Shown: positions 22,867 to 46,401 of the stretch, in pieces | Numbering within the stretch: the first letter of the stretch is position 1 | Layout: the number at the start of each line of letters is the position of its first letter | NCBI GenBank assembly: GCA_013314775.1 | Contig: JABUFB010000017.1 | Location: 62,001 to 126,000 of the forward strand | Origin: Armatimonadota bacterium | GTDB taxonomy: Bacteria; Armatimonadota; Zipacnadia; Zipacnadales; JABUFB01 | Direction: 5' to 3' | DNA length: 64,000 bases | Program-made: the position numbers and the translations under genes | Notes under the pieces: generated by a model | Seen by the model: only the letters and a program-made list of their open reading frames with translations | Told to the model about the DNA's origin: nothing | The model's database searches: none

Positions 22867-24615
22867 TCATTCTTCCTCGCCGGGGTCTTCGTCCTGTGCG
22901 TATTTGCCGAGTTGCTCCCGGGCATAGAGGCGCACGGATCGGTCTGGATCGTGGGTGATCATGTGGCTTACCATCTCCCGGGCCACCGGGTTGTCCATGC
23001 GCCCAAGTATCCAGGCCGCGGCTTCGCGCCGGCGCGGGTCTGGGTGTCCAGTAAGTCCGAGGATCCGGGGCAGAATGAACACTCCCGCACGGAGTAGCAC
23101 GATGCGCGCGACTTCGTGCAGGTCCGGGGAAACCAGTGCTGAGAAGACGGTCTCGGTTCGCCTGTCACCCGGAGTCAATGGGTGCGTGTCGAATGCTGCG
23201 AGAAAGCGCAATGCTCGCATATCGGCCTCAATCGTCGCGCTCAGAGCCTCCTCGTCATCCTCGTCCAGGAAGTCCAGTTCGTCATCATCCTCGTCCCATA
23301 GCGAGTGTTGTTCGGGGGCGTCAGCGTCGGCCGTCTGCGCTTCCTCATCCGCCTCAAACTCCAGCTCTTCGTCCTCGGGGAAATCATCTTCCGGCAGATC
23401 CTCGCGGAGAAACAGGTCCAGCCAGTGGGGCGCTGTGGGCTCCTCAATATACGACTGCCCCGGCGCAGGGCTGTCGAGAACGTCGCCCGCTCGCGAGGGA
23501 ACGACCTCATAGTCTCCGTCATCCAGCGCATTGGCCCGGAAGCGAAGCGTTGCGCCGGTCTCCATTGTGCCGGGGACCTCGAACATCGCCCGCCGAGTTG
23601 CCCGCGACACCAGACTGTCCAACGGGCGCGCTCCAAGCCCTGCGGCGGAGGCCATCTGCGCCGCACGCGACACGAAATCCGGCGTGAAATCGAGACTCAG
23701 CCCTTCGAGAGAAGCGGCTTCACGCAGGCGCGCGATGGGGCCGCCGTCCTCCTGTTCAAGGATCCTCTGCAGATCACTCTCGTCCAGTTCGCGGAGGGGA
23801 ATCACGGTATTCAGGCGCCCTGCCAGTTCCGGGCGGATACCGTAAGCGATGAGGTCATCCGGCGTCACCTCGGACAGCAGGCTCGTGCGAGACAGTTCGC
23901 ACAACTCATGTGTCGCACTGCCGGGCCCGAACCCGATGCGGCCCGACCTCGGCCGTAGTCGCTCTCGCACGATCTCGTCGAGCCCTTCGAAAGCACCGGC
24001 GGCGATAATACACAGTCCGTGTGTTTCGAATTGGCCCTGGTAGACTGCGCGGCGTTCGCGGGACGACCCGGTGCTCGCCAGATTGAGCTTGCGTCCTTCG
24101 ACCAACGCGAGCAGTTCCACCTGAACATCGTCGCCTCGAATGTCTCGGCCATCGCCCTCCTGGGTGCGCAGCTTGTCCAGTTCGTCCAGGAAGAGGACAC
24201 CGCGCTGGGCATCGGCGACATCTCCTCCAGCGGAGCAGATCAGGTCCTGAACGGCGTCCACAACCGAACGCCCTACGTAGCCGGTGCCGCTGAGGTGGCC
24301 GCAGTCCTCGGCGTGGAACGGGAGCCCACAGATCCGCGCGAAAGTTCTCACCATGTGGGTTTTCCCACTGCCGGTGGGACCGATGAGGAGCACGGTGTCG
24401 CGCCATCGTGGCACGCAGGGGAGATCAAGCTCCGAAGCCCTGACCCGGAGAAGATGCTGTCGCATCACTGCTGCGAGGTCGCGGACAGCCGCATCCTGCC
24501 CGACCACGCTGCGCTGGACCGCCAGGGCGAGCTCACGCGGACTGGGCAACTGGTCCAGCACGCGGCGCCGGACATCGGAACGCTGGCCTTCGGACGGTCT
24601 CGTGGGATCAAGCAT
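22867..24615 (-). CDS. ClpX-like AAA+ unfoldase without zinc domain, HEAT-like C-terminus
   Basis: A 582-aa protein starting at ATG 24615 after GGGG spacing. The N-terminal zinc-binding domain of ClpX is absent. The AAA+ core is clearly ClpX-type: Walker A GPTGSGKT (79-86), pore loop GYVG (112-115), Walker B VLFLDELDKL (140-149), RIGFG (226-230) at the position of the ClpP-docking IGF loop, and sensor-2 GARPLDSLVSRATR. After residue ~390 comes a long acidic linker (many Glu/Asp, 430-490) and then a helical segment with HEAT-like repeats (DPRRREAAAWILGRMDNP, DPDRSVRLYAREQLG). It could unfold selected substrates for ClpP. The extra domain may be a substrate or adaptor receptor, which is inference. 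It is cotranscribed with the coiled-coil gene at 24662, and a paralogue lies at 38175. Confidence 0.88.
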   Translation of the reverse strand: MLDPTRPSEGQRSDVRRRVLDQLPSPRELALAVQRSVVGQDAAVRDLAAVMRQHLLRVRASELDLPCVPRWRDTVLLIGPTGSGKTHMVRTFARICGLPFHAEDCGHLSGTGYVGRSVVDAVQDLICSAGGDVADAQRGVLFLDELDKLRTQEGDGRDIRGDDVQVELLALVEGRKLNLASTGSSRERRAVYQGQFETHGLCIIAAGAFEGLDEIVRERLRPRSGRIGFGPGSATHELCELSRTSLLSEVTPDDLIAYGIRPELAGRLNTVIPLRELDESDLQRILEQEDGGPIARLREAASLEGLSLDFTPDFVSRAAQMASAAGLGARPLDSLVSRATRRAMFEVPGTMETGATLRFRANALDDGDYEVVPSRAGDVLDSPAPGQSYIEEPTAPHWLDLFLREDLPEDDFPEDEELEFEADEEAQTADADAPEQHSLWDEDDDELDFLDEDDEEALSATIEADMRALRFLAAFDTHPLTPGDRRTETVFSALVSPDLHEVARIVLLRAGVFILPRILGLTGHPDPRRREAAAWILGRMDNPVAREMVSHMITHDPDRSVRLYAREQLGKYAQDEDPGEEE

Positions 24616-24661
24616 TGGAGTTTCCCCATTACGTGTTGTTCTCGGTTCGTGTGCTGGGCGC

Positions 24662-24862
24662 TCACCGCATTGCGTTGGCAATCTGTCGCTCGATGTCGGC
24701 GATCTGGCGGTCCAGGTCTGCGATGTCGCGCTCCGCCACGGACGCCTGGTACTCCCACCCGGTCAACTGCCGATAGCGGAGGAGATCCCTGGTGCGGTTC
24801 GCTTTGCGTTGCAAAAGGCTGGCCTTGCGGCTCTGAAGGCTGGCGATCTGGTTGTTGGACAT
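24662..24862 (-). CDS. Small coiled-coil protein upstream of ClpX-like gene
   Basis: A 66-aa protein starting at ATG 24862, with AGAGG about 11 bp upstream. The whole length is predicted helix with heptad-like hydrophobics: IASLQSRKASLLQRKAN and ERDIADLDRQIADIERQIAN, suggesting an antiparallel or dimeric coiled coil. It ends 46 bp before the ClpX-like gene on the same strand, so the pair is likely cotranscribed, and it may be a substrate, adaptor or regulator of that ATPase. I do not recognise a named family. Confidence 0.7.
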   Translation of the reverse strand: MSNNQIASLQSRKASLLQRKANRTRDLLRYRQLTGWEYQASVAERDIADLDRQIADIERQIANAMR

Positions 24863-27126: not shown

Positions 27127-27321
27127 GCCGCATCACAGCTGCAGCGTCAGCATCAGTGCAGATGAAGCGCGGCAGCATGTGCAGCACACGGGAGGACTCG
27201 TGGCAGGCATGGGCGAAGCCGCAACACGATCTGCACGGGTGCTGGACGCCGCCGTCCTCTGCGACCCGTCATATCTGCATCGCTCGCAGTTGAACGTGAT
27301 GCACAAACGGGGGGAGCAGCC

Positions 27322-30216
27322 TTGATCCTCGACCAATACATGGACCTGGCCCAGTGTGAAGAAGCGCTGGCGAGCCAGTTATCCGGCAAGACACTCTTAG
27401 GAGAAGCGCCACTAGAAGCCGAAGATGTCTGCAAGCTGGGAAGGCTCTTCTGCCTTATGGACTCGCCGGCTACGATTTGGCGACGGTTCCCTTTCTGCGC
27501 TGCGTGTTTCACCACCGGAGTTTTCTCCCATTTCTATGACGACAAGTACTGGCCACATTTTAGGGACCAGTACTTGCAGCTGTCTGGTGCAGAAGAGACC
27601 GAATGGCGCGATGCCTTTGAGGGCTTCCTGAGGCGCACTGGATTGCCCGCTTTTCACCACGTAGACGGGCAGAGGTTTCTAAGGCATGTGCGCATTCACG
27701 CCCTTATCCCGGCAAACGGGGTCGGGCGGCTCTTCGAGCACGTAGTGCGTCCAGCGGTCATGCGTGGTCTTGATGATGGCGAATGGACAGCCGCAGAGAT
27801 CCTTCGCGAACTGGGAGTCTCATACCCTCAACTGCATAGGCCTGAGGAGAACTTCCTGAACTACGGGGGACATGTTGCGGATGACCTGCTCGGACGCTGC
27901 ATGACCCTTTATCGAAGATCGGTACAGGGGTCTGTCGGCGATGACAGTCTCGACCTGCCGCAGTGGCTTGTGGATGCCTTTCGCGAATGGATAGACGGGC
28001 ACCCCTCCCACCGCATCCCGTTGGAGGGCCATGCGGAACGCCCGCAGATACATCTTCGGCTATCTCTTGACAGTGCAGCGGTTACGCTGGTGGTCGCGCA
28101 ACTGCCCTCAGAGTGGCGTTCCGGACGGACGATGAACGTATACGCCGAAAACGGGCCCGATGATTCCACTCTGGTGGCCGCGCAACGCGTCGAGGTCGAC
28201 CCGTTCGTGAGACAGACGGAGTCGCGGCTCGAGCTGCCGCTCGAGACTTTGGCTTCTCGCTACCGTGTGGAATGGCGGAAAACTGACGACGAATGCTCCA
28301 CCGTCGAACATGTGCGGGGGTTCCTGGGTAACGGAGTCCGCTGGGCGGCATTCGCGGCCAACGACCCGGAGAACAGATTGATCCGACAGCAGTACCTGCC
28401 ACGGGGCGAAGTCTGGCTGGTGTGCCCGACAGATGCATGCGTGAAGGCAGTCCAAATAGACGGCGGAGTGGTCGAGCCGGCCCAATGCCCAGAGAGCTTT
28501 GGGTTGGATGGGATCAGCGGGATGTCAGCACGCCTCATTGATACCATGCGTTGCTCCGGCCTCGTACTTGAGATGAGTCCGGCAGACGGCAAGACGGCCG
28601 AAGAACACATCCCAGTGGACTTGATGCCCCAACTCAGGCTGGTAGGGGAGGTCCCGGGGGCGTCGATCGCCGGAGTGCCGGTGTGCGCAGAGGTTCCCGA
28701 AGTTGACTGTATTGGCGACAACAATGGTGTAGTCGTGGAGATCGAACTGCTGGACGGCATGGCGAGACCGCCACTTCCTGCGTTCGTTCAGGCGTCAGAA
28801 TTGCGGGCAGTTTTGCAGGGACGGTCTGGGGTCTTTCGGTTCCGTGTTCGCGGTCGTCTGGGGCGACGCGGAACGCCAGTCACGGTCGCCCTGATCCCCG
28901 GCTTGCAGGTCCGCTTCACTCCCCCCATCGTACTCCCCGGGCACAATGGGCACACGGTAGTTGACGTCTCAGCGCCTCATTGCCAGGTGCGCAGAAACCC
29001 CCAGTCTGCACACCCGGGTGTATCCGGCCATGACCCGATGGTAGTTAGTCCCGATGCGCGCCGGCTAAATCTGCAATTGGTGCACCTGCCGCCAGGGGGG
29101 GGAGCGCGCCAGTTCGATCTGGCGGTGGTTGTCCCCAGGCTACTGGTGGGAGTGACCACGCCCGGTGGTGAGCCCAATTTGCTTCCGGCTGTGGCGAGAA
29201 TACCGAAGCAGTCAATTGAGAACACGCCCCGCGTTTTCCTGGACCTCTTGATGCAGCCTAATCCGACTAGATGGAATGCGACTCTGCGCGCGGATGCCCT
29301 CCAAGCCGCCGTTACGCAGCCGGCGGGCCGGCAGACCTCCAGCGCGCGCATAAGGTTCGACCTCGCGATGTGGAGAGACGCCATTCTCGCGGCAAACAGG
29401 GCTGTCGAGTTGCGTGTCGATGCCTATCGCGCCGACCTGCAGATAGCTGAAGGAACTCTTGTCGCTCTCATATCATCGGAGTGCCGACTGGTCAATGCCA
29501 CTGCTGAATTCGTTCTAGGTGGCCGAGGCGCAATTCTCCGCTACGAATTCGATCCCCACGGCCCTGCGGCGAATTTGCGCCTGGTCAGCACCTCTTACCC
29601 TTGGCTGTCACCCATCGAGATCCAGGTTCCCGGACGGCACAGAGGCGAGATCGAGCTGCCCAATATGGCCCCGGGGGCGTACGCGATCGAGCCCGTGGGA
29701 GACCCGTGCAGTCAGGCTGACATCATCCCTGATCTCGACGGCATGAAGTGCTTGGACCTGCTGACCCACGACGAGGCGCAGCAACATGGTTGGGAGGCGT
29801 TGCTTCGAAAGACCGCGCAGATCTGGGACGGAACGTGGCGTCAGCGCGGCGGCCAATGGGAACTGGACGAGGAGAGCGCGGACCGGGCGGACCATGATAT
29901 GTCCCGGTACGTCAGAGAAGCGCAGGGCACGCACCCCGCTTTGCGTCTCAAAGCCGACGATCTCCGCCACACATTGGTGCTCATGGTGTACTGGGGCAGC
30001 CAGTCTGTCCGCTGCAAGCAGGCCATGTCTGCGCAGTACTGGGAGCGGGCGGTGCTTCTGACGGTCAGGCTGCTTAGGCAGTGCACTCACGCACCCAACC
30101 TCTTCGGAATGCTCACCGATCGGCTCGATGAGCTCAGACAGGTCGCATGCCCGAGGACCCGCGAGATCTGCCGTCGACTTCAGGGCGTGCTCATCAGATG
30201 TTTCCAGCGCTGCTGA
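27322..30216 (+). CDS. Large partner protein of DUF1998 helicase, unknown family
   Basis: A 964-aa protein with no recognised enzyme motif. The start is TTG 27322, 4 bp after a GGGGGGAG run (27310-27317); ATG 27340 is the alternative. The N-terminal ~220 residues carry segments that recall a conserved domain of large helicase-associated proteins: FPFCAACFTTGVFSHFYDDKYWPHF, where FPFC and YWPHF are key, then GLPAFHHVDGQRFLRHVRIH, ALIPANGVGRLFEHVV and FLNYGGHVADDLLGRCMTLY. Residues ~240-800 are beta-rich, possibly several Ig- or CARDB-like modules. The last ~150 are helical. It ends 20 bp before the helicase start and is surely cotranscribed. By position it is equivalent to the large non-helicase subunit of two-gene helicase defence systems such as Druantia III; homology to DruH is not shown. 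Confidence 0.6.
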   Translation: MILDQYMDLAQCEEALASQLSGKTLLGEAPLEAEDVCKLGRLFCLMDSPATIWRRFPFCAACFTTGVFSHFYDDKYWPHFRDQYLQLSGAEETEWRDAFEGFLRRTGLPAFHHVDGQRFLRHVRIHALIPANGVGRLFEHVVRPAVMRGLDDGEWTAAEILRELGVSYPQLHRPEENFLNYGGHVADDLLGRCMTLYRRSVQGSVGDDSLDLPQWLVDAFREWIDGHPSHRIPLEGHAERPQIHLRLSLDSAAVTLVVAQLPSEWRSGRTMNVYAENGPDDSTLVAAQRVEVDPFVRQTESRLELPLETLASRYRVEWRKTDDECSTVEHVRGFLGNGVRWAAFAANDPENRLIRQQYLPRGEVWLVCPTDACVKAVQIDGGVVEPAQCPESFGLDGISGMSARLIDTMRCSGLVLEMSPADGKTAEEHIPVDLMPQLRLVGEVPGASIAGVPVCAEVPEVDCIGDNNGVVVEIELLDGMARPPLPAFVQASELRAVLQGRSGVFRFRVRGRLGRRGTPVTVALIPGLQVRFTPPIVLPGHNGHTVVDVSAPHCQVRRNPQSAHPGVSGHDPMVVSPDARRLNLQLVHLPPGGGARQFDLAVVVPRLLVGVTTPGGEPNLLPAVARIPKQSIENTPRVFLDLLMQPNPTRWNATLRADALQAAVTQPAGRQTSSARIRFDLAMWRDAILAANRAVELRVDAYRADLQIAEGTLVALISSECRLVNATAEFVLGGRGAILRYEFDPHGPAANLRLVSTSYPWLSPIEIQVPGRHRGEIELPNMAPGAYAIEPVGDPCSQADIIPDLDGMKCLDLLTHDEAQQHGWEALLRKTAQIWDGTWRQRGGQWELDEESADRADHDMSRYVREAQGTHPALRLKADDLRHTLVLMVYWGSQSVRCKQAMSAQYWERAVLLTVRLLRQCTHAPNLFGMLTDRLDELRQVACPRTREICRRLQGVLIRCFQRC

Positions 30217-30236
30217 CTCCGGAGGTCCGCTTCGCC

Positions 30237-33200
30237 ATGTTCGACCCGATCCAAGTGACTCTAGACTTGCGTTCACAGTATGAGAGCTACGTGACGACGA
30301 CGCTGCCGATCCGGTATGACGGTCTAATGGACGACCTGCGCCGTGAGTTGGCCAGCCCCGATACCTTCGTCAAGGGCCCCTATCTGGAGGCGACGCCTCC
30401 TTTCGTTCACCATGATCAGACCTACTCTGAGCTGGTGGAGCAGGGCCTCCTGTGCCAGGGCTGGAAGGCGGTTTTTGGCCCCGATTTTCCCCCCGAGCGC
30501 CGCCCCTATCGACACCAGTACCTAGCATATGAACAGGTCATTCGGCGGAACCGCAACCTGGTTGTTGCCACTGGAACGGGTAGCGGCAAGACGGAAGCTT
30601 TTCTCGTGCCGGTCATCGACTATCTGTTGCGGCAACAGGAAAAAGGGGAGCTTGGGCCGGGTGTACGTGCGCTGCTGCTGTACCCGATGAACGCGCTGGC
30701 CAATGACCAGCTCAAGCGAATGCGGGAGTTGTTGCAGCATCTGCCGACGATCACCTTCGGACGTTACACAGGCGACACGCAGAATCAACGCGACCAAGGC
30801 AGACAGCAATACATTGAGGAGCACCGGAATGAAAGTCGGTTCCGCGAACCCCTGAAGAACGAGCTCCTCTCCAGAGAAGAGATGCACGCAAGCCCTCCCC
30901 ATCTATTGTTGACGAACTATGCGATGCTGGAGTACCTGCTCCTCCGTCCCGAGGCATCCCCACTCTTCGGACGCGATCAGTGGCGGTTTGTTGTTCTGGA
31001 CGAAGCTCATACCTATGACGGTGCACGAGGTATCGAGGTCGCAATGTTGCTGCGCCGCCTGAAGGATCGGGTTGTGCGCAGCGAACCAGACCGACTGCGC
31101 TACATTGCAACCAGCGCTACTTTGGGTACCGAAGAACGGTCAGACATCAAGGTGGCCGAATTCGCAGGGGAGCTGTTCAGCGAGGAGTTCTGTGCGGACG
31201 ATGTGGTCATGGGTGAGAGACAGGCATTGTGCGAAGATGGTCAGGCTCTGTGGACCATGAAACCATCTGCATTTGCATCTCTGGCGGAGGCGGCCCAGAA
31301 AGAGCCCTGCGACTTGTCCGATCTCGCGGTCCATGCAATTGATCTTGGCGTGCCTGCAGACATCGTTGCCGAAGCGAAGGGGCATGCTGAACAGCTCTCC
31401 ATGACAGAAAGCTCGGACGACACTCGCGCGCGGATCAGTCGTTTCCTTTATGATCTTCTGAAACGCGAGGAATACCTGTGGAAGCTGCGAGCCACTCTGG
31501 ATGAGCACCGTGTCCAGAGCTTGGAAGCTGCCCGGCGAAAAGTCTTTGGTGAGCTTGACCCGGACACGGGGCGAGAGGCCCTCGTGGGGCTTGTCGCCCT
31601 CGCTGCTCGTGCTCGCCCATCGTCGTCAGAGACCAGCCTGCTTCCTGCAAGATACCATGTGTTCGTTCGCGCTCTTGAGGGAGGCTTCGTTCGGCTCTAT
31701 AAAGGGGCGAGGCTTCACCTCGCTCCGCGCGAGACCGAGGAAGTAGAGGGCCGAGAAGTCCCAGTGTTCGAAGCTGCCGTCTGCACCAACTGCGGCTCGC
31801 TCTTCCTCGTAGGCGACTGGCAAAGTGGCAGGATCTGTCAGGCACCCCTCAAGGCCGCTGACCACATTGGTGACAATGTGGAGCTCTTTTGGGTGACCCC
31901 GGACGCAATGTGCCCTGGCAACGCGGACGATGAGGATGAGGACCTGGAAGGCGAGAGTGATGCGTTGGCGACGGTCGACCCGGAGTCCTTCGCTTTGTGC
32001 ACTGCGTGCGGGGACGTGCGACCACAGAGCGAGACCACCCCATTAGTGTGCACTTGCGGCGCGAGTCAACAGTTCGTGAGACTGATCAGGGCTGCCAAGT
32101 CCAAGGATGACATGGTGCGCCAATGTCCGGCCTGCAAGAAGACTGCTCAGCGCCGCTCCATGATTTCGCGGTTCACACTCGGGCGCGACGCACCGATCGC
32201 CGTCTTGGCCAGCACGCTGTACGCTCATCTGCCGGAGACGACCTTCGGGGGCCAAGAAGAGACCGAGGAGCGGAGAGCACGGCAGTTTCTTTCCTTCGCA
32301 GACAGCCGTCAAGACGCGGCATTCTTTGCTGCGTATCTTGAGCGTACCCACAACCGCGTCCAATGGCGCAGGATCATTTACCAGACACTGCTGCGCAGTT
32401 CCTCTATGGCGCGTGACGGGGAGTGGGTGTTGGATGACTTGCAGCCCTTGGTGCAACGATCCGCCGTGGAGCTCGGCCTACTGGACGCGACCGAAAGACC
32501 GCAAGAACTGATTAACGAAACGTGGCGTAACCTGCTTCTTGAGTGTCTTCGTTTCGACCGCCACAATGACCTGGAGGCTACAGGCTGTATTGCATACAGG
32601 TATCGACGGCCTGCAAGCTGGACAGCGCCGTCCCTGCTCAAAGATGATCCGTGGGGGCTAACAGATGACGAAGTCTGGGCACTGTATGAGACTTTGCTCG
32701 ACACGGCACGCGTACACGGGGCTGTGACGTTCCCGAACACTACGCTGCAGCCCAACGATGAATGCTTCGCGCCAAGAAATCGTGAGGTGTTCCTCGTCTA
32801 CCAGGTAGAAGGCGCCCGTCGCGATGTGGTGAAGTGGCTTCCGTCCGAAGGGCGCACGAACGGCCGGTTTCGCGTGCTGGAAAGGCTCTCAGAAGGCAGA
32901 GCCGAGATCGGCCACCAACAGATCGAGGAAGCGCTCCATGCCATCTGGGACGACCTGACATCACCCCGCACGTCCGTACTGCGCTTTCGGTGCGATAGGC
33001 GCGGTGCGTACTACTACCAGATCGATCGTGAACGCCTCCTGCTAGCCGGCCCCGAGATCGGCAATGCGCAATGGTTCCAGTGCAACCTGTGCAAACAGTT
33101 GACCACTCACAATCTTCGCGGCGTGTGTTTTCAGACAGGCTGCAACGGTGTCTTGGTCCCATGCCACCCCAATGAGGCTCTAGCTGACAACCATTACCGT

Positions 33201-35195
33201 CGCCAATACTCGACGCCACACGAGGACGTACCTATCATCCCGATGTCAGTGCGCGAACACACAGCGCAGCTTTCGAACGAGCGCGCTGCACGGCTGGCAA
33301 CCGACTTCGTTGCCGGGCGCGTGAACGTTCTGAGTTGCTCAACTACCTTCGAACTCGGTGTGGACATCGGTGAGTTGCAGTCCGTATTGCTTCGCAACAT
33401 GCCGCCGAAGCCCGCGAACTACGTGCAAAGAGCGGGCCGGGCAGGGCGGCGCCTCGATTCTGTTGGCTTTGCACTCACCTACGCCCAACGTCGCACCCAT
33501 GATCTATTCTTCTTCCAACACCCTGAGCGGATCGTCAACGGGCAGATGCGTGCTCCCCGCGTGCGGGTGGCCAACGATAAGATCATCAAGCGCCACATGA
33601 ATGCCGTCGCGCTGGCAGCCTTCTGGCGAGAGCACCCGCAGTATTTCTACGATGCGGGCACCACGTCCGAACGAGCCAGGGCGTTCTTTGGGTCTGGTGA
33701 TCGCGCAGACGGCGTGGAGGCTTTTCGGCGGTTTATCGCCCAGAAGCCAGAACACGTGAGAGACGCTCTCACGAGAATAGTCCCAGATTTCGAGATCCGT
33801 TCCGGCCTCTTCTTTCATGACTATATCGGCGTTAGGGATTGGGGTCGGTGGGTAGAAGATCTGCTCGCCGAGGGCGACTCCGAGACGCCTGGGGTGCTGA
33901 CCAAGGCATCCGAGGGCTATACCGGAGAGTTGATGAGCATCAAGGACCTTATGGACCAGCTCGAGAGCGAGAAGCCCCCCAATTGGACAGGGCGCTATGG
34001 GCACTTGGAAAGAGTGCGGGAGACAATCTGGAAGAGGAGGCTGATCGGCTACCTCGCGAGTAAGGGTGTCTTGCCTAAGTACGGTTTCCCGGTGGACGTC
34101 GTTCCTTTGCAGATCAACAACACGAACATCCCACGAGGCGACACCAATCCGGAAGATCCTCTCGAATTGGACCTGGATCGCGACTTGAGAATCGCTCTCG
34201 CTGAGTATTCGCCCGGCTGCCAGATCGTGGCCGGCGGCAGCGTGTGGACATCGCGAGGCATCCATCGTCCGTCGGACCGCCAGTGGGTGCGGCGGGAATG
34301 GCGAGTGTGTGATGGGTGCGGGCGATACTTCTCACGCGTCTACCTGCCGGGCGAACAGACAGCGGACTTCGGCGACTGCAACGTGTGTCAGACAAGACTC
34401 CGAAGAGGTAGCGGGTCCGGAGGGGTGTTCATCGTGCCTGAGTTCGGCTTTAGCACACATCATGAGAAGCCCGGCCGCCCGGGCGAGCGCAGACCCCGAC
34501 GTGCGCATACGACAGAGGTGTATTTCTCCGGAAAAGACCAAGCTATCGCGCAGGGCGCCCCCCGAATCGTTGCAGGCGGCAAGATCACGGCCACAGCCTG
34601 GCGCGACGCGGACCTGGCAGTGATCACCCGCGACAGTTTCAGGATCTGCGATCGCTGCGGCTACGGGGTCGCGGGATGGGAGACGCCTCCTAAGGCACAC
34701 GAAACGCCGTGGGGCAAGCCCTGCGGTGGACACATCCAAAGGGCGCCCTGCCAACTAGGGTACGAGTTCAAGACAGACATCTGCCAGATCGCCCTTGCGG
34801 GTCTCGACTTCCCCGCAGGCGACCGGGCCAACTCGTTCTGGCCGTCACTTCTCTACGCTCTCGTTGAAGGGTGTGCCGTGGCTCTGGACATCTCACGAGA
34901 CGACATTGGAGGGGTCCTCTTCCGGGAGGCTGCAGGCCACAGCATCATCCTCTACGACGATGTGCCAGGGGGGGCCGGCCACACCTGGCGCATCGTGAAT
35001 GAGGACAACGCGCTTGAATCACTACTTCTGGCGGCGAGAGACCGTGTCGGCGGGGAGTGCGGCTGCCAACCGGAGACCAGCTGCTACGGCTGCCTGCGCG
35101 CCTTCAGCAACCAGCGGTATCACGAGCAGCTCCGACGCGGGGACGCATATGAGTTCCTGGACCACCAGGTCGTGCCTTACCTGACAGCGAATTGA
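30237..35195 (+). CDS. DEAH-box helicase with DUF1998/zinc-rich C-terminus (DruE/YprA-like)
   Basis: A 1652-aa superfamily 2 helicase. ATG 30237 is chosen because GGAGG lies at 30221-30225 and the product opens MFDPIQVTLDLRSQY, as in relatives; longer frames back to 30147 overlap the upstream gene. The Q-motif region is YRHQYLAYEQ (91-100), motif I TGTGSGKT (112-119), motif II DEAH (255-258), motif III SAT (293-295), and motif VI QRAGRAGRR (~1064). It has many zinc-type Cys clusters (CTNCGSLF, CTACGDV, CNLCKQLT, CDGCGRYF, CDRCGYG) and a C-terminal DUF1998/MZB domain with IILYDDVPGGAGH and CGCQPETSCYGCLRAF. The family translocates on nucleic acid and is the signature subunit of Druantia and related defence systems. 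The size and two-gene context favour a defence role over YprA/MrfA-type repair. Confidence 0.88.
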   Translation: MFDPIQVTLDLRSQYESYVTTTLPIRYDGLMDDLRRELASPDTFVKGPYLEATPPFVHHDQTYSELVEQGLLCQGWKAVFGPDFPPERRPYRHQYLAYEQVIRRNRNLVVATGTGSGKTEAFLVPVIDYLLRQQEKGELGPGVRALLLYPMNALANDQLKRMRELLQHLPTITFGRYTGDTQNQRDQGRQQYIEEHRNESRFREPLKNELLSREEMHASPPHLLLTNYAMLEYLLLRPEASPLFGRDQWRFVVLDEAHTYDGARGIEVAMLLRRLKDRVVRSEPDRLRYIATSATLGTEERSDIKVAEFAGELFSEEFCADDVVMGERQALCEDGQALWTMKPSAFASLAEAAQKEPCDLSDLAVHAIDLGVPADIVAEAKGHAEQLSMTESSDDTRARISRFLYDLLKREEYLWKLRATLDEHRVQSLEAARRKVFGELDPDTGREALVGLVALAARARPSSSETSLLPARYHVFVRALEGGFVRLYKGARLHLAPRETEEVEGREVPVFEAAVCTNCGSLFLVGDWQSGRICQAPLKAADHIGDNVELFWVTPDAMCPGNADDEDEDLEGESDALATVDPESFALCTACGDVRPQSETTPLVCTCGASQQFVRLIRAAKSKDDMVRQCPACKKTAQRRSMISRFTLGRDAPIAVLASTLYAHLPETTFGGQEETEERRARQFLSFADSRQDAAFFAAYLERTHNRVQWRRIIYQTLLRSSSMARDGEWVLDDLQPLVQRSAVELGLLDATERPQELINETWRNLLLECLRFDRHNDLEATGCIAYRYRRPASWTAPSLLKDDPWGLTDDEVWALYETLLDTARVHGAVTFPNTTLQPNDECFAPRNREVFLVYQVEGARRDVVKWLPSEGRTNGRFRVLERLSEGRAEIGHQQIEEALHAIWDDLTSPRTSVLRFRCDRRGAYYYQIDRERLLLAGPEIGNAQWFQCNLCKQLTTHNLRGVCFQTGCNGVLVPCHPNEALADNHYRRQYSTPHEDVPIIPMSVREHTAQLSNERAARLATDFVAGRVNVLSCSTTFELGVDIGELQSVLLRNMPPKPANYVQRAGRAGRRLDSVGFALTYAQRRTHDLFFFQHPERIVNGQMRAPRVRVANDKIIKRHMNAVALAAFWREHPQYFYDAGTTSERARAFFGSGDRADGVEAFRRFIAQKPEHVRDALTRIVPDFEIRSGLFFHDYIGVRDWGRWVEDLLAEGDSETPGVLTKASEGYTGELMSIKDLMDQLESEKPPNWTGRYGHLERVRETIWKRRLIGYLASKGVLPKYGFPVDVVPLQINNTNIPRGDTNPEDPLELDLDRDLRIALAEYSPGCQIVAGGSVWTSRGIHRPSDRQWVRREWRVCDGCGRYFSRVYLPGEQTADFGDCNVCQTRLRRGSGSGGVFIVPEFGFSTHHEKPGRPGERRPRRAHTTEVYFSGKDQAIAQGAPRIVAGGKITATAWRDADLAVITRDSFRICDRCGYGVAGWETPPKAHETPWGKPCGGHIQRAPCQLGYEFKTDICQIALAGLDFPAGDRANSFWPSLLYALVEGCAVALDISRDDIGGVLFREAAGHSIILYDDVPGGAGHTWRIVNEDNALESLLLAARDRVGGECGCQPETSCYGCLRAFSNQRYHEQLRRGDAYEFLDHQVVPYLTAN

Positions 35196-35232: not shown

Positions 35233-35556
35233 TTGTATCTCGCACCCCCAATTCCGAAGGGTGAAGCAACGTCGATCGAGCAGATACGAGAAAAGGTCGC
35301 CGAACGCATCAGCAAGCGTGGCTTGGAGTACGCCGATGACATACTGTTGCAGTGCTGCAGATTCGAGCAGCTGACGGACGGGTCGCCCTTTGCAAAGGCG
35401 TTCTCCGCAGCACTGGATTCCTTGGGCGGGCTGGGTGGCGCTGAAACGCAGGACGGTACGTGCCCTGAGGAAATGCTCGAGACGGCGCGCGGCCGGTACG
35501 GGTATGATAAGCGAGATCAGAGCGAAAAGCGCTGGTGGTTCGAAAGCCCAGAGTAG
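35233..35556 (+). CDS. Small protein downstream of the helicase
   Basis: A 107-aa reading frame beginning at TTG 35233, 37 bp after the helicase stop. It reads as a compact helical protein (IEQIREKVAERISKRGLEYA, DDILLQCCRFEQL, KAFSAALDSLGGLGG) with a Trp-rich end (KRWWFESPE). Its last 40 bp overlap the 3' end of the decayed McrB-like gene on the other strand, as if an insertion or deletion joined two loci here. No RBS of note and no known family. It could be a third component of the helicase module. Confidence 0.5.
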   Translation: MYLAPPIPKGEATSIEQIREKVAERISKRGLEYADDILLQCCRFEQLTDGSPFAKAFSAALDSLGGLGGAETQDGTCPEEMLETARGRYGYDKRDQSEKRWWFESPE

Positions 35557-36656
35557 CTGCGCCTATCCCATGATGGATGCGAATGTTGGGACCGCTGCAC
35601 GAGGTCTAGGAGCCTGTCCACGAATAGGCCGGGGCCGACCTCGAGCGACACCGTGCCGCATGCCGCCATCTGGTACTCGAACAGGTAGAATACTGGCCCC
35701 AGCACAGTGGCCAGGTTGGCGCGGTTGATTTCGTCGATGATCAGCAGCACGGGGCTCTGCGGATGGTCTCTGGCCAAGCAGATGGCACGGTGCAAGGGGC
35801 CCTCGGTTTTCTCATATGCCACGTCATCCCGTCCCAGTCTGGGCCTGATGCCCCAGACGAAGTCGGAATAGCCGGTCTCAGCGTGGAACTGGGTGAATAC
35901 ACTGTGATCCTCGGTGACGCCCAGTCTCTCAGCCATCAGCTTGGCCAGATGGGTCTTACCTGTTCCGGGCGCGCCCTGCAGAACCAGGTACTTGCGCGCA
36001 CGCAGGAGCCTCAGGACCTCCGCTTCGTCGTCGACCTCGTCGCCCCGGTTACGGTCAGAAAGGGCCTGAATCGCCTTCTCCACTGCTCGACGGTGCTGCT
36101 GGTTCCTTGGCCAGTTCCGCAGTCGCGCGTCGGCAGCAAGATAGCCCTTCACGATCTCTTCATACTCTGCGCTTCCGGGATCACGTACAACATCACACGC
36201 CAGTATGTGCTGGCCGTACTTCTCGAGTGTGGTGGACAGATGGGGCAATGGGTCGGACTGATCCGCCGGGAGCCTGGTCTCGACGTCGGCGAAGTTGGAC
36301 TAGCAGAATCCCACCGTGCGACTGGTCAGCCGGCGGTAGATGCGTTGGGTTCCCGGCCGTGTGGCCAGCTCGTAGTCGTCACCGAAACCGGCGGTGCCAA
36401 CCACGAGGCTAACCAGCCAGGGGCCGTCCAGGGCCGGGAACACGACCAGGGAGAGCCCCTGGTATGGTCCAGAAGGCGGCTCAGATCCACCGATCACCCC
36501 GAAGTACGGTGCCCCCTTTTCCAGTGCATCGCCTTCAGTCGCCTTGCGAACGATGTAGGTGACCCCTTCCTTGCCACCATACTCAGCAGACCATTACCAG
36601 AACTGCTCTGATACCTCGTCGATCTGATCCCTGTCGCTCCGGGTGGGTTCCGACAT
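35517..36656 (-). pseudogene. Decayed McrB-like AAA+ ATPase gene
   Basis: A single minus-strand frame runs from ATG 36656 (ribosome-binding site AGAGGGAG upstream) to 35517 but is broken by in-frame TAA at 36594-36596 and TAG at 36300-36302. The N-terminal part has PYFGVIGGSEPPSGPYQGLS, LVVFPALDG and LVVGTAGFGDDYELATRPGT, a domain seen before the ATPase in some McrB-like proteins. Then come Walker A GAPGTGKTHLA and Walker B VLLIIDEINRANLATVLGPV. The protein stops soon after Walker B, so sensor 1, the arginine finger and the rest of the AAA+ lid are lost, and no McrC partner adjoins. It is the remnant of a type IV restriction-like gene, cut at its 3' end near the helicase module. Confidence 0.8.
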
Positions 36657-38064: not shown

Positions 38065-38165
38065 AGTGTATATCCAACCGGGGCTGACGCCATCATGAGT
38101 TGTTGTTGCCTCAGTCAGCCGACTCAGAGGCGACCGGCACACAGACAGTGCACATCCAATCGGGG
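38065..38165 (+). repeat. Two direct 19-bp repeats before ClpX-like gene
   Basis: AGTGTATATCCAACCGGGG (38065-38083) and AGTGCACATCCAATCGGGG (38147-38165) agree at 16 of 19 positions and start 82 bp apart. The second copy includes the GGGGAG that acts as ribosome-binding site for ATG 38175. They may bind a regulator, or reflect a small duplication of the leader. Confidence 0.45.
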
Positions 38166-38174
38166 AGTGATCAA

Positions 38175-39902
38175 ATGGGCGAAGCTATCCTTGTGCGTTC
38201 GGAAGACGACGTTCGGCCTCAACTCCAGAGCCAGTATTGCCAGGTGCTGCGTTTCGACCTCAAGCCCGAGGAGATTGCTGCAGCACTGAACCGGACCGTG
38301 GTGGGACAGCAAGATGCATGCCGGGCGCTGTCGGTACATCTGCGCCGGCATATGCTCAAGGTCCGGGAGATGCATTACTACCGCTACATGCGGCGCGCGC
38401 CCTGGAGCACCGATGACCTGGGCGGAGTCCTGCTCCTGGGCCCGACCGGATGTGGCAAGACCTACCTGGTGCGCGCTCTCGCCCAACTGGCCTCTCTGGT
38501 TTTCCACTCCGAAGACGCATCGAGCCTCACCGAGACTGGCTACGTCGGGCGCGACACCAGCGACATAGCTCGGGCGATCACCCTGGAGGCCGGTGGATAT
38601 GCACCACTGGCCTCGACGGCGCTGCTGTTCCTGGACGAAGTGGACAAGCTGCGCTTCCGCCCAGACAGTGCCGGCAAGGATGTTACCGGGGAGGGGGTCC
38701 AGCGCAGCCTGCTCGCTCTGCTCGACGGGGCGGAGGTCCGCTTCGCCAGCGACGGACGTCAGCGGAACCGCGACGTGGCCCTGGGCACCGACTGCTTGTT
38801 CATCACACTTGCCGGCGCGTTCTCAGGCCTGGAGGAGATCATCGCCCGCAGGCTGCGGCGAGGGAAGACAAGCATCGGCTTTGGGCGCGAGCCCCTCGAC
38901 CACGACCGGGCTCGGCGCCAGGGCGATCTGCTGCAGGAGGTCACCCCTGAGGACTTGGTCCAGTACGGGTTCATGACCGAACTGGTGGGACGCCTGCGCG
39001 ACATCGTGCCTCTGCGTCCCCTGGACGCCGACACCATGCGAGACATCCTGCTACATCCGGAGTGCGGCCCCCTGGCCATCTACCAGCGCAACGCCATCAA
39101 GGAGGGTTTCAGCCTGGAGTTGACCGACGATTTGGTGGACAGGATTGTCACCAACGCGCTCGGTTCCGGCCAGGGCGCGCGCGCTCTCAAGCGGATTCTC
39201 GCCCAGGTCACGGAACGCGCGCTCTTCGAGATGCCCGGGCGTGTGAGCAGGCGCGGCGACACAGTGGTGAGGTTGGGCCTGAGCGCTCTGGAGGACGGTA
39301 GGTATGAGGTGATCACTGCTCCCGCAGAGGGCGGCGCCGTGGACTGGGAGCGGATGTTCAACGAAGTGAAGGACTGGATCGAGGATCGGGAACAGATGAT
39401 GCCCCGGGGGATGGTGGCCGAGGATGAAGAGATGCTTCTGACCAAGACGTCGCAGACCGAGAAAGCAGTCAGGAACCCCACTCCCTGTTCTCGTCCGGCT
39501 GAGGAGGAAAAGCAGGTACCGGCGGAGCTGGAAGCCTCCGCAGAGGTGGCCGCAGCTCTGATCGCCAGCCAGATCAGTGGAGAGGGTTACGAAGTTGTTT
39601 GCGAGACGGAATTGAAGATGAGGGGTAGGCAGCTGGGCATCTACGACATGAGTAGCGACTTGCCCACTGTCAGGGTGACTTTGTGGGTAGCTTCCCCCGA
39701 AAACCCCGATGTCCCCCCCGAACTGTCCGGTCGTCGCCTGCGCGCTTACGCAGAGAAGGCAGGTATCGAGGCCGACGGCTGGTGCCTGCGACGAGGTGCT
39801 CGTGCGTGTGAGGTCCGGGTGCGTCCGGACGGGCGCCGCTGGCGCCGGCATGTGGTGATTATCGGGCTCGACTATTCAGAAGCCAGGAAGTACCTGCATT
39901 GA
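38175..39902 (+). CDS. Second ClpX-like AAA+ unfoldase with novel C-terminal domain
   Basis: A 575-aa protein starting at ATG 38175 with GGGGAG 8 bp upstream. Like the protein at 22867 it lacks the ClpX zinc-binding domain. The core has Walker A GPTGCGKT (89-96), pore loop GYVG (122-125), Walker B LLFLDEVDKL (150-159), SIGFG (233-237) at the ClpP-docking loop and sensor-2 GARALKRILAQVTERALFEM. The C-terminal region from ~400 differs entirely: an acidic linker, then a ~120-aa alpha/beta domain (VAAALIASQISGEGYEVVCE, TVRVTLWVASPENPDVP, RRHVVIIGLDYSEARKYLH) that I do not recognise. It probably unfolds a specific set of substrates for ClpP. It is divergent from the DUF932 gene and followed by an intrinsic terminator. 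Confidence 0.88.
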   Translation: MGEAILVRSEDDVRPQLQSQYCQVLRFDLKPEEIAAALNRTVVGQQDACRALSVHLRRHMLKVREMHYYRYMRRAPWSTDDLGGVLLLGPTGCGKTYLVRALAQLASLVFHSEDASSLTETGYVGRDTSDIARAITLEAGGYAPLASTALLFLDEVDKLRFRPDSAGKDVTGEGVQRSLLALLDGAEVRFASDGRQRNRDVALGTDCLFITLAGAFSGLEEIIARRLRRGKTSIGFGREPLDHDRARRQGDLLQEVTPEDLVQYGFMTELVGRLRDIVPLRPLDADTMRDILLHPECGPLAIYQRNAIKEGFSLELTDDLVDRIVTNALGSGQGARALKRILAQVTERALFEMPGRVSRRGDTVVRLGLSALEDGRYEVITAPAEGGAVDWERMFNEVKDWIEDREQMMPRGMVAEDEEMLLTKTSQTEKAVRNPTPCSRPAEEEKQVPAELEASAEVAAALIASQISGEGYEVVCETELKMRGRQLGIYDMSSDLPTVRVTLWVASPENPDVPPELSGRRLRAYAEKAGIEADGWCLRRGARACEVRVRPDGRRWRRHVVIIGLDYSEARKYLH

Positions 39903-40301: not shown

Positions 40302-41081
40302 ATGAACGCCATGCAGGTCAGCGCTATCGTGTCTGTCGCCAATTGCCCCATCCGCGAATCGCGCGGCAGCCTTACCCGGGCGGCTTCGAGACCGTTGAGC
40401 CTCCGGAGGCGCCTTCAGGCGCTCGCTCTGCAGGCGGCGGCCGGCGATCCTGCCGCCTGGCAGGCGCTGTGGAAGGCAGTTCTCGACAGCAGTCTGATCC
40501 TGAGTTGGGCAAGGAAGCGCTTCAACTCCCGCGATGACGCAGAGGATGCGGCATCGGAGGCACTCATCCGCGCGATCAAGGGCTTCCCCACCTACGAGCC
40601 GCGGCTGTCCAAGTTCACGACCTGGGTATACAAGGTGGCACACAATGCCTTCAATGGTTATTACAGGCGCCGGGTGAAGCCCCAGAAGGACATCGATTCG
40701 CTTGAGGAGCAGCCCGTGGATGTGCCGGATCAGCGGACGCCCTTTGGTGGCGGGGAGCATGGCCTGCGCTTTCTTTGGGCGCTGCTCTGCTCCTCCGCTG
40801 CCGGGCTGTCGGACCGGCAGCGTCAGGTTGTGTGGTTGGTGGCCGTGGAGCGGCTGGAGCATTCGGAGGCTGCGGTGATCGTGGGGATTACCGAAGGGTA
40901 TTGCAGGCAGGAGTACTCTCGCGCCAGGGCGAAGCTCCGCAATGCATTTCCCGAGGCCGCTCGCATCTCTTACTGGCGGGGCGAAGATCTCCTGCCGTCG
41001 GGAGCTGTCTGCGGGACGCCCACAAGTCGCGCACCATATGACGTCGAGTTCGCACCGTATCAGGCACGGCCTTGTCCTTGA
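40302..41081 (+). CDS. Sigma-70-family (ECF-like) RNA polymerase sigma factor
   Basis: A 259-aa protein. ATG 40302 is preceded by AGGAG at 40287-40291. Region 2 is visible as LILSWARKRFNSRDDAEDAA, SEALIRAIKGFPTYEPRLSKF and TTWVYKVAHNAFNGYYRRR, the last containing the aromatic -10 melting segment. Region 4 is LSDRQRQVVWLVAVERLEHS then EAAVIVGITEGYCRQEYSRARAKL, a helix-turn-helix of -35 recognition type. A ~45-aa basic N-terminal extension and a ~40-aa C-terminal tail are unusual. It lies 38 bp before the WYL regulator gene. It probably directs transcription of a small regulon, possibly island genes; no anti-sigma factor is adjacent. Confidence 0.85.
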   Translation: MNAMQVSAIVSVANCPIRESRGSLTRAASRPLSLRRRLQALALQAAAGDPAAWQALWKAVLDSSLILSWARKRFNSRDDAEDAASEALIRAIKGFPTYEPRLSKFTTWVYKVAHNAFNGYYRRRVKPQKDIDSLEEQPVDVPDQRTPFGGGEHGLRFLWALLCSSAAGLSDRQRQVVWLVAVERLEHSEAAVIVGITEGYCRQEYSRARAKLRNAFPEAARISYWRGEDLLPSGAVCGTPTSRAPYDVEFAPYQARPCP

Positions 41082-41119
41082 CCCAATTAAGCGGCTATCG
41101 AAACGGGGAGGGATTTCCG

Positions 41120-42091
41120 ATGAACCAGGCGCTCCGCCTGCTCAGGATCCTGCAAGAACTGCCGAGGCTTCGCGGGAACGAAGAGAGCACAGCTGCCGCC
41201 CTTGGGGAAAGGTTGGGCGCCTGCGAGCGGACGATCTACCGGGACATGGCGCTTCTCGCGGAGGCCGGGTTCCCCGTCCGTAATGATGGTGAAGGCTACT
41301 ACCTGCCGCCCACGAACCCGGGACTGTCTGTGCAGCTGAGCGCCACGGAACTCAGCGCGATCCATTATGCACTGGACTGGCTGGAGGAAGCTCTCCCTGA
41401 CGCGCTGGCGATCGATTCGGACGCCCTTGTGGGAAAACTGGCGGCCGTGTGCGGCACGCGCGAGGCGCAGATATGCGCGGGTACGGAGGGGCTGCGCATC
41501 TGGCCGCGGCTTACTGACGGGCCGGCGGTGACCAAGAACCTGCAAACTGCCCTGAAGGCGCGTCGCGAGCGGCGCAAATTGCGGGGGATCTACTGCAGTC
41601 TGGAAAGCAACACCACGCTGGAACGCATTCTTCACCCGTACGCGATCATCTACCGGGCGCAGGCCCACTACATCGTGGCCTACTGCGAAGAGCGCCGGGC
41701 AGTCAGGACATTCCGCCTAGATCGTTTTCGGGAACTTGCGGTGCTGCCGCAGGCGGCGGAGATCGACGATGACTACGATCTCGAGGAGCATTTCGCCGGA
41801 GCGTGGGAGATGGTCGGCGGGCGCAAGCAAACGGTGAGACTGCGCCTCACCGGGAAGGTTGCCCAGCGCATGTCCCAGGCATGCGTGCACCCCAGCCAGC
41901 AGATCCTCAACCGCACGGAGGACGCCCTGGAACTGCAACTCAACGTAGCGCTGACCGAGGAGTTCGAGGGCTGGCTCCTGAGCATGGGCGGAAGCGTCGA
42001 GGTCCTTGCGCCGCAGACACTGCGCAGCCGTATCCGCGAACAGGCCCGAAGACTGTTCGAGAACCACAGCGACAACAGCGACGGGAGTTGA
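41120..42091 (+). CDS. WYL-domain transcriptional regulator
   Basis: A 323-aa protein. ATG 41120 follows GGGGAGGG (41105-41112), which fixes the start. Residues 1-60 are a winged helix-turn-helix of DeoR/HTH_11 type (LGERLGACERTIYRDMALLA, EAGFPVRND). A WYL domain follows (LERILHPYAIIYRAQAHYIV), in which the family's W-Y-L reads H-Y-I, and then the WCX C-terminal extension (VRLRLTGKVAQRMSQACVHP). WYL regulators sense nucleic-acid or nucleotide ligands and often repress phage-defence loci. Its place between the helicase module and the McrBC-like genes fits such a role, which is inference. Confidence 0.88.
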   Translation: MNQALRLLRILQELPRLRGNEESTAAALGERLGACERTIYRDMALLAEAGFPVRNDGEGYYLPPTNPGLSVQLSATELSAIHYALDWLEEALPDALAIDSDALVGKLAAVCGTREAQICAGTEGLRIWPRLTDGPAVTKNLQTALKARRERRKLRGIYCSLESNTTLERILHPYAIIYRAQAHYIVAYCEERRAVRTFRLDRFRELAVLPQAAEIDDDYDLEEHFAGAWEMVGGRKQTVRLRLTGKVAQRMSQACVHPSQQILNRTEDALELQLNVALTEEFEGWLLSMGGSVEVLAPQTLRSRIREQARRLFENHSDNSDGS

Positions 42092-42380: not shown

Positions 42381-44027
42381 ATGCAGATCCCCCAACTCGT
42401 CGACCTGTTCGTCGATCACCTGCGCACGGAGCGTGGGGCGTCGGAAGCAACGGTGACCGCCTATCGCTCCACACTCGTCATGCTGCAACAGTTTCTCGAT
42501 CGCGAGAGCGATGCGCCGGACTTCGAGGACGTCACGACGGCCACTCTCCGGCGGTTTGTCAGTTCCCTGAAGGTCGCTGGGGCAGCGAACTCATCGGTTG
42601 GGCGCCACGTGCATGCGATCCGCAGTTTCTGGCGTTTCGTGGTCGAGACGTACGATCTCGGCACCAACGCTTCGCTTCCCCTGCGCGCGCCGAAGCCCGA
42701 TCACCGGATCCCCACGGTCTTGTCTCCCGATGAATGTCAGGCGCTCATCAACGCCTGCGAGCACAATCACTATCGTCTCTATCGCGTCCGTGACCGGGTG
42801 CTGGTCAAGCTGATGTGCGTGGTCGGACTGCGTCGGAGCGAGGTCATTGCGCTCCGCGTCTGTGACTATGACCGGTCGGGGCGTGCAATCACGGTCGCCA
42901 TGTCCAAGGGGCGCAAGTCCCGCCTGGTGCCGATCCCGGGCGATCTAGCGGCCGACATCGACGCCTGGCTGCAGATGCGTCCGGTGGTGGATCACGACCG
43001 CCTGCTGACCACGCGTACCGGCAAGGGGCTGTCGACGAAGTGCCTGTACCGCACGCTGGAGCGTCTGGCTGAGGAAGCAGACCTGTCGGATCGGCACATC
43101 ACGCCACACGGGCTTCGGCACACGGCCGCGACTCTCGTCCTGCGTAACTCCGGGGATCTGGTGGCGACCAGTCGCATGCTCGGGCATTCGAGCGTTGCGG
43201 TGACGGGGGATGTGTACTGCCATCTCACCACGGACGACGTGCGACGCGCGGTGGGTGCGCATCCTCTTGCCGGGCTTGAGCGGAGAACAGTCGCGTTGGC
43301 GGTGGGGCCGACGGCGGATGGTGTGCGCCTGCCGGAAGACGCGCGGGAGATCGTCCACGCCGCCGAATGCCGGGCCAGTGAGGCGCTCGCGGCATTTCGC
43401 GATTGGGCCACAGCCGACAGGGCTCGGGCTGAGCGCAATCGGCGCCAGTGCGTTCTGGAGGTGGTGCGCAACTACGTGCGACCGCGGGAGACGGTGGACC
43501 GGTCGGTAGTGGAAACGGTGCTGGTGCGGGGCGGCGTTGTGGACGGGTTCACCATGGCCGAGCATCTGCGGATCGCTAACCTGTATGAGGTCCTGGTCCA
43601 CTTGCCGGACCTCGCTGCGGCGGCTGGAAGCTGGGGCGAGTTGTTCAGCGATGTGGCCGGGCGTCTGACCGGGAAACGCAGTGGAGGTATGTCACCGGCG
43701 CAGGCGAGACGGATTGACGACGTGGAGCGGGAACTGCGCCAGACGGACCCGGACGCTGAGCCTGAGACAGCCTGGTTCGCGCATGCCCCAGCGCTTGTGG
43801 GGCGGACTGACTTGCCGCCGGAGGATGGGTTGTTGCTGGCTCAACTTGCGGCCAATGTTGCCTGGGCGAGACGAGGTCTGCCTCTCGTGTTCGCTGGAGC
43901 CTTCGAACTGCCGCTGCTGCAGCGGTGCATTGGGACCTACAACTCACTGGATTCCAGTCTGCTCCGTCTTTTCGTCGCCGGGCGCGTGAGCGAGTTTTGC
44001 CAGGAGGCTATCGGATCTGATGGGTGA
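42381..44027 (+). CDS. Tyrosine recombinase/integrase with long C-terminal extension
   Basis: A 548-aa protein. Residues 1-95 are a SAM-like core-binding domain (LFVDHLRTERGASEATVTAY). The catalytic domain keeps the full active site: Arg151 (GLRRSEV), Lys176 (SKGRKSR), His243 and Arg246 (PHGLRHTAA), His269 (MLGHSS) and Tyr279 (GDVYCHL). It most resembles XerC/D-type recombinases, which are usually ~300 aa. About 240 further residues follow, ending with LPPEDGLLLAQLAANVAWAR and FELPLLQRCIGTYNSLDSS; their layout vaguely recalls the C-terminal helices of Fic proteins but lacks the HPFxDGNGR motif. It probably integrates the element that carries part of this island. Repeats lie immediately upstream. 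Confidence 0.9.
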   Translation: MQIPQLVDLFVDHLRTERGASEATVTAYRSTLVMLQQFLDRESDAPDFEDVTTATLRRFVSSLKVAGAANSSVGRHVHAIRSFWRFVVETYDLGTNASLPLRAPKPDHRIPTVLSPDECQALINACEHNHYRLYRVRDRVLVKLMCVVGLRRSEVIALRVCDYDRSGRAITVAMSKGRKSRLVPIPGDLAADIDAWLQMRPVVDHDRLLTTRTGKGLSTKCLYRTLERLAEEADLSDRHITPHGLRHTAATLVLRNSGDLVATSRMLGHSSVAVTGDVYCHLTTDDVRRAVGAHPLAGLERRTVALAVGPTADGVRLPEDAREIVHAAECRASEALAAFRDWATADRARAERNRRQCVLEVVRNYVRPRETVDRSVVETVLVRGGVVDGFTMAEHLRIANLYEVLVHLPDLAAAAGSWGELFSDVAGRLTGKRSGGMSPAQARRIDDVERELRQTDPDAEPETAWFAHAPALVGRTDLPPEDGLLLAQLAANVAWARRGLPLVFAGAFELPLLQRCIGTYNSLDSSLLRLFVAGRVSEFCQEAIGSDG

Positions 44028-44033
44028 GGAACG

Positions 44034-44650: not shown

Positions 44651-44758
44651 CCCCCCGCATAGCCGGGAACCCTCGCGTGGGGAAGGTCCATCGCCGTCGC
44701 TGCGCGAATTGCTCGGCGGTAGTCCCCCACGATGTTTCAGGGAGCGGTCGATTGAAGC

Positions 44759-46390: not shown

Positions 46391-46401
46391 CGGAGGCTTC
46401 G

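What the first reader, a model, noticed from the sequence alone, without database searches (positions are those of the whole stretch)
27322..35195. Two-gene helicase module with an unrecognised 964-aa partner
A 1652-aa DEAH helicase with multiple zinc-type Cys clusters and a DUF1998-type C-terminus is preceded, 20 bp upstream, by a 964-aa protein with no recognised enzyme motif. This two-gene layout resembles Druantia type III and other DUF1998-helicase defence systems. The partner's N-terminal motifs (FPFC, YWPHF, GLPAF, NYGGHVADDLLGRC) may define a conserved family. Flanking mobile and restriction genes support a defence role.
Basis: partly seen in the sequence, partly recalled or inferred. 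Interest (0 to 1): 0.75.

Follow-up and report, generated by a model that had tools for sequence, protein, structure and literature searches.

The report
Nuclease-less Druantia-III-like helicase pair
An Armatimonadota bacterium carries a two-gene unit, a giant DruE-type helicase plus a 964-residue protein that no database recognises; it is most likely a stripped-down cousin of the Druantia type III anti-phage system, interesting because it has no identifiable DNA-cutting domain.

Summary
In detail: a 964-aa ORF (27322-30216, TTG start) and a 1652-aa helicase (30237-35195), 20 bp apart, each with a good ribosome-binding site. The helicase is a DruE-family YprA helicase (PADLOC DruE E = 5.6e-185) with an MZB/DUF1998 domain. 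It is not canonical Druantia III DruE: in a tree of 43 relatives it groups with an Armatimonadota helicase next to a DUF1156 methylase, a Ruminococcus phage helicase, an IMG/VR contig and cyanobacterial plasmids. Like the first two it ends about 35 residues after the last zinc cysteine pair, so it lacks the PLD nuclease domains of DruE3. The 964-aa partner matches nothing in Pfam, PADLOC (all DruH models), NCBIfam (YjiT/DruH), PHROGs or PDB; its only clear homologue (79%, same genus) is under purifying selection (dN/dS 0.19). Its best-conserved N-terminal stretch weakly resembles the N-termini of other DruE partners, DruH included: E = 0.001 in one set-up, but alignment-dependent and not significant in others; structure prediction and fold search were uninformative. 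Best reading: a member of the published but little-described 'Druantia type III-like' branch, with an unannotated, probably DruH-like partner. New variant of a known kind; function untested.

The parts
27310..27316 (+). ribosome-binding site GGGGGAG before the TTG start of the partner gene
   Evidence: read from sequence
27322..30216 (+). 964-aa partner gene, unrecognised; probably DruH-like (inferred)
   Evidence: ORF; no match in Pfam/PADLOC/NCBIfam/PHROGs/PDB; homologue in G254 79%, dN/dS 0.19
27472..27729 (+). N-terminal helical module of the partner (aa ~51-136; contains FPFC, YWPHF, GLPAF and RFLRHVRIHALIP), part of the best conserved stretch
   Evidence: 88-98% identical to G254 across aa 61-180; matched by a profile of other DruE partners, E=0.001 in one set-up, not robust; predicted all-helical, pLDDT 61, pTM 0.62
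30221..30225 (+). ribosome-binding site GGAGG of the helicase gene
   Evidence: read from sequence
30237..35195 (+). 1652-aa DruE-family YprA helicase without C-terminal nuclease domain
30573..30593 (+). helicase motif I GTGSGKT (aa 113-119)
30999..31010 (+). helicase motif II DEAH (aa 255-258)
33426..33452 (+). helicase motif VI QRAGRAGRR (aa 1064-1072)
34854..35096 (+). MZB (DUF1998) zinc-binding domain, aa 1540-1620; the protein ends about 35 residues after its last CxxC
   Evidence: Pfam PF09369 E=8e-11

Best explanation
The two genes form a Druantia-type-III-like anti-phage module without a recognisable nuclease. Shown: a DruE-family SF2 (YprA) helicase with an intact ATPase core and zinc modules but no C-terminal PLD or Vsr domain, next to a conserved partner of unknown family with operon-like spacing, both under purifying selection. 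Inferred: the partner plays the DruH role. It would sense infection (a phage protein or phage DNA state), and the helicase, loading on 3' single-stranded DNA of replicating phage genomes as reported for E. coli DruE, would unwind or stall these intermediates. DNA breakage, if any, would come from the partner (E. coli DruH is reported to be a dimer-dependent nuclease) or from host nucleases, not from the helicase itself.
For: DruE profiles match the helicase over nearly its whole length. Solved DruE (9tu7) is its best PDB relative, E=1e-84. Tree placement inside the Druantia/ARMADA branch, in a clade separate from DruE1, DruE3 and ARMADA. No nuclease: 37 residues after the last MZB cysteine pair against 364-409 in DruE3; the same short end in G225, the Ruminococcus phage and G008b. 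The preprint PMC12458937 describes a Druantia III-like branch that most often has no nuclease domain. Partner directly upstream in the window; in two other loci of the clade the helicase also follows a long unannotated gene: Ruminococcus phage 916 aa, IMG/VR L068 1256 aa. N-terminal similarity to other DruE partners: own protein found at E=0.0011 by a profile that excluded it, best shuffle of 500 5.5 bits against 14.3. Mechanistic analogy: PMC13192584 and PMC13316683.
Against: The N-terminal similarity depends on the aligner and training set: with other MAFFT modes or families left out E rises to 0.1-10 or the hit is lost, and decoys reach 0.008. DruH-only profiles do not find it and a profile of non-DruH partners did not find DruH in PDB. 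hhalign against DruH gave no hit. Full-length model unusable, pLDDT 34; N-terminal model gave no significant fold match. No phage assay of this clade is known to me. Co-transcription is not shown.
Confidence: 0.6

Rival explanations
1. The helicase is DruE-like and defensive, but the partner is an unrelated protein recruited separately (partner swapping), not a DruH homologue.
For: No profile links it robustly to DruH. The closest other Armatimonadota helicase (G225, about 33-38% identity) has a different partner, a DUF1156 methylase with a C-terminal extension.
Against: Top-ranked leave-own-out profile hit in one set-up; same position and size class as DruH; low-confidence prediction of helical N-terminus, strand-rich middle and helical C-terminus as reported for DruH.
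Confidence: 0.28
2. DNA-repair YprA/MrfA-type helicase with a species-specific accessory protein, not a defence system.
For: The YprA family includes repair helicases (PMC12458937); no nuclease in the helicase; the helicase matches YprA (6znp) in PDB.
Against: Much stronger match to DruE than to YprA, 1652 aa with extra zinc clusters, no MrfB-like exonuclease seen beside it, a relative carried by a phage, defence-type neighbours, partner absent from the other Armatimonadota searched.
Confidence: 0.07
3. A decayed Druantia III that lost its nuclease and sensor domains.
For: No nuclease; a McrB-like gene that looks truncated lies next door.
Against: dN/dS 0.17-0.19 between two species; separate relatives end at the same place; helicase motifs intact.
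Confidence: 0.05

Closest known systems
Druantia type III (DruH-DruE; PMC13192584, PMC13316683)
   Same: DruE-family helicase with zinc modules and MZB; two genes in the same order, partner first
   Different: no PLD domains at the helicase C-terminus; partner fails all PADLOC DruH models and NCBIfam YjiT_fam; helicase in a different clade
Druantia type III-like branch of YprA helicases (PMC12458937)
   Same: DruE-like helicase, most often without a nuclease domain
ARMADA types I and II
   Same: YprA-like helicase of the same large branch
   Different: no BrxHII-like helicase, PglX-like methylase or C-terminal Vsr domain here; separate in the tree
Module of Ruminococcus phage NatCom_28274 (PV036439.1, L065)
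   Same: helicase of the same clade (about 30% identity over its length), no C-terminal nuclease, preceded by a 916-aa gene of unknown function
   Different: partner not alignable to the 964-aa protein with confidence; carried by a phage

Membership tests
Druantia type III | DruE-family helicase | tested here: met
   PADLOC DruE1 E=5.6e-185, DruE3 E=1.7e-173
Druantia type III | DruH (YjiT family) partner | tested here: not met
   no PADLOC DruH or NF038336 match at E<=1; remote N-terminal similarity only, not robust
Druantia type III | two C-terminal PLD domains on DruE, the last active | tested here: not met
   37 residues after the last MZB cysteines against 364-409 in DruE3
Druantia type III | two-gene order partner then helicase | tested here: met
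Druantia type III | helicase in the DruE3 clade | tested here: not met
   separate clade
Druantia type III-like branch (PMC12458937) | YprA helicase of that branch, mostly nuclease-less | tested here: inconclusive
   domain make-up fits but reference sequences of the branch were not at hand
[quoted passage not shown]
   none among the neighbouring genes scanned
DISARM | OB-CON-DUF1998 module in a separate gene (DrmB) | tested here: not met
   MZB is fused to the helicase, aa 1540-1620
Anti-phage defence system | protection from phage | not testable with these tools
   needs expression and plaque assays

The most novel reading that the evidence does not exclude
The helicase partners of several Druantia-like systems (DruH of type III, the ~950-aa protein of DruA-type operons, the cyanobacterial 967-aa protein, phage and Armatimonadota partners) share one fast-evolving N-terminal sensor module. 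The window's module would be a nuclease-free form that defends by helicase action alone or by a nuclease hidden in the partner.
Probability: 0.3. Interest if true: 0.65.

Novelty: new variant of a known kind. Interest (0 to 1): 0.42.

Why it matters
If correct, it widens Druantia to a form in which neither gene has a recognisable nuclease, and so asks whether unwinding alone can stop a phage. It also shows that profile-based tools such as PADLOC and NCBIfam miss a class of DruE partners. A sensor module shared across partners would give a handle to annotate many unnamed genes beside DUF1998 helicases.

Tried and rejected
hhalign of the 2-sequence partner family against 9 DruH sequences: no hit. 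hhalign against cyanobacterial and L034 partners: low scores, though collinear in part. Pairwise Smith-Waterman z-scores: 2.9 at best between the window protein and other families. HMM tests with smaller training sets: not significant for the window protein. A profile of the non-DruH partners did not retrieve DruH from PDB. AlphaFold of the full protein: pLDDT 34; of the N-terminus: pLDDT 61, pTM 0.62, no fold match at E<0.001 in the PDB or viral libraries; the PDB fold library ends in April 2026 and may lack DruH 9tud. A weak hit in G260 (L093) reads by eye as a secreted polysaccharide-lyase-like enzyme and was taken as chance. Searches for partner homologues in plasmids and viral contigs found none. 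ARMADA, DISARM and repair readings rejected as stated.

Full report
Observation. The partner begins at TTG 27322 behind GGGGGAG and ends at TGA 30216; the helicase begins at ATG 30237 behind GGAGG and ends at 35195. The window lies in an Armatimonadota genome: the nearest public relative is a MAG titled Armatimonadetes, and the window is part of G000 contig 17. Of 291 genomes of the phylum only the window's own and one of the same genus, G254, have the partner. In G254 the partner gene runs off one contig and the helicase lies on another; blastn ends match window 29546 and 30849, so linkage is consistent but not seen directly. Upstream genes are syntenic from about 22.8 kb on. dN/dS is 0.19 (partner) and 0.17 (helicase), so both are under purifying selection; partner aa 61-180 are the most conserved part, 88-98%.

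Helicase. Pfam: DEAD, Helicase_C, MZB. PADLOC: DruE1 E=5.6e-185, DruE3 1.7e-173, far above DpdJ, DrmA and BrxH. PDB: DruE 9tu7 at 1.4e-84, YprA 6znp at 4e-21. In FastTree trees of 35 and 43 helicases the window protein and G254 group with G225 and the Ruminococcus phage protein (support 1.00 and 0.999), then, in the larger tree, with IMG/VR L068 (0.94) and three cyanobacterial plasmid proteins (0.90; only 0.18 in the smaller tree). DruE3, DruE1 and ARMADA form separate groups. The window helicase ends 37 residues after the CYGC pair of MZB; G225, the phage protein and G008b end after 34. DruE3 has 364-409 residues there, L068, L055 and the cyanobacterial proteins 362-398. PMC12458937 reports a Druantia III-like branch that occasionally has PLD domains, sometimes Vsr, most often no nuclease. 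The clade seen here fits this description, but I could not place it in that tree.

Partner. No match in any library. PADLOC DruH models do recognise Rhizobium DruH and K-12 YjiT, so the lack of a match is informative. True DruH (NF038336) occurs in two other Armatimonadota. By eye the motif block resembles a stretch in DruH and in other genes next to DruE-like helicases: a helix, Y/F-W-x-x-F, then G-x-x-[YF] and, a few residues on, [HQE]-[AGS]-x-[ILV]-P. I tested this with profiles from which the window family was left out. The database was 714 ORFs of at least 250 aa from all loci. With the widest training set (DruH, cyanobacterial, IMG/VR DruA-type, L055, L034, phage, L068) and global-pair alignment the window protein scored E=0.0012 and its G254 homologue 0.0019, below only the L082 partner (0.00019, an untrained DruE neighbour with its own weak DruH match); the best decoy had 0.58. 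Of 500 shuffles none exceeded 5.5 bits against 14.3. But this set-up came after many others tried on the same data, the training crops were chosen around the motif I had seen, and with other aligners or with families removed the E-value ranged from 0.0005 to above 10 or the hit was lost, while decoys reached 0.008. I therefore treat the homology as suggestive only. hhalign, pairwise z-scores and a PDB search did not confirm it. AlphaFold of the whole protein failed (pLDDT 34); the N-terminal domain gave an all-helical model of middling confidence without fold matches.

Context. Upstream: ARPP-1 (PF20208, 26116-27126) and a zinc-ribbon-like protein. Downstream: a 107-aa ORF, a McrB-like AAA fragment on the other strand, DUF932, a ClpX-like AAA, sigma-70, WYL regulator, phage-type integrase, DUF2357-PDDEXK (McrC-like) and a HARE-HTH AAA protein matching PADLOC PDC-M26A. 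No tRNA in the window. This is compatible with a defence island but does not prove one. G+C is 59-60% over most of the helicase against 62-66% in most of the window.

Mechanism. From PMC13192584, DruE loads on 3' single-stranded DNA, unwinds, and carries PLD domains; DruH has helical ends and Ig-like domains, is the likely sensor, and is reported as a dimer-dependent nuclease. PMC13316683 reports that DruH-DruE contact is needed for defence and that phage DNA circularisation and replication are blocked; PMC13192584 saw no stable complex of the two. By analogy the window pair would sense infection through the partner and act through the helicase. Without PLD domains the cut, if there is one, must come from the partner or the host.

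Verdict. Observation confirmed; a Druantia III-like module, not Druantia III proper; partner family unannotated. New variant of a known kind, moderate interest.

Noticed in passing
L065 6218-13641 (PV036439.1): Ruminococcus phage NatCom_28274 carries a 916-aa unknown gene overlapping a nuclease-less DruE-like helicase, between endolysin and exonuclease/polymerase genes.
   Followed up: partly
L036 4161-14357, L037, L038: Cyanobacterial plasmids hold a three-gene unit (about 967 aa, 307 aa and a roughly 2100-aa DruE-like helicase with a C-terminal extension); neither of the two partners of L036 matches PADLOC. In L038 the long partner looks split in two.
   Followed up: partly
L022 3-9073: In Armatimonadota G225 the related helicase follows a DUF1156/HmaB-like methylase with a long C-terminal extension bearing Cys/His zinc-finger-like motifs.
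   Followed up: partly
L034 6090-14117: Armatimonadota G008 has a 931-aa unknown gene 21 bp before a nuclease-less helicase that groups with DruE3 in the tree.
   Followed up: partly
L056, L057, L059, L060, about 3.9-13.5 kb: IMG/VR contigs with DruE1-like helicases (DruA confirmed in L057) carry a 950-1000-aa protein; the three scanned in PADLOC had no match.
   Followed up: partly
window 22867-24681 (-) and 38100-39902 (+): Two paralogous ClpX-like AAA proteins (41% identity over 367 aa) flank the module on opposite strands; the first has HEAT repeats.
   Followed up: partly
window 35517-36248 (-): McrB-like AAA protein that seems cut short after the Walker B region, just downstream of the module.
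   Followed up: no
window 42381-48249: DUF2357-PDDEXK (McrC-like) gene and HARE-HTH AAA gene matching PADLOC candidate PDC-M26A, next to a phage-type integrase at 42381-44027 and a WYL regulator at 41072-42091.
   Followed up: no
window 57588-62207 (-): 1539-aa ORF with only a weak PADLOC match (Cas11d, E=0.0015); not examined further.
   Followed up: no
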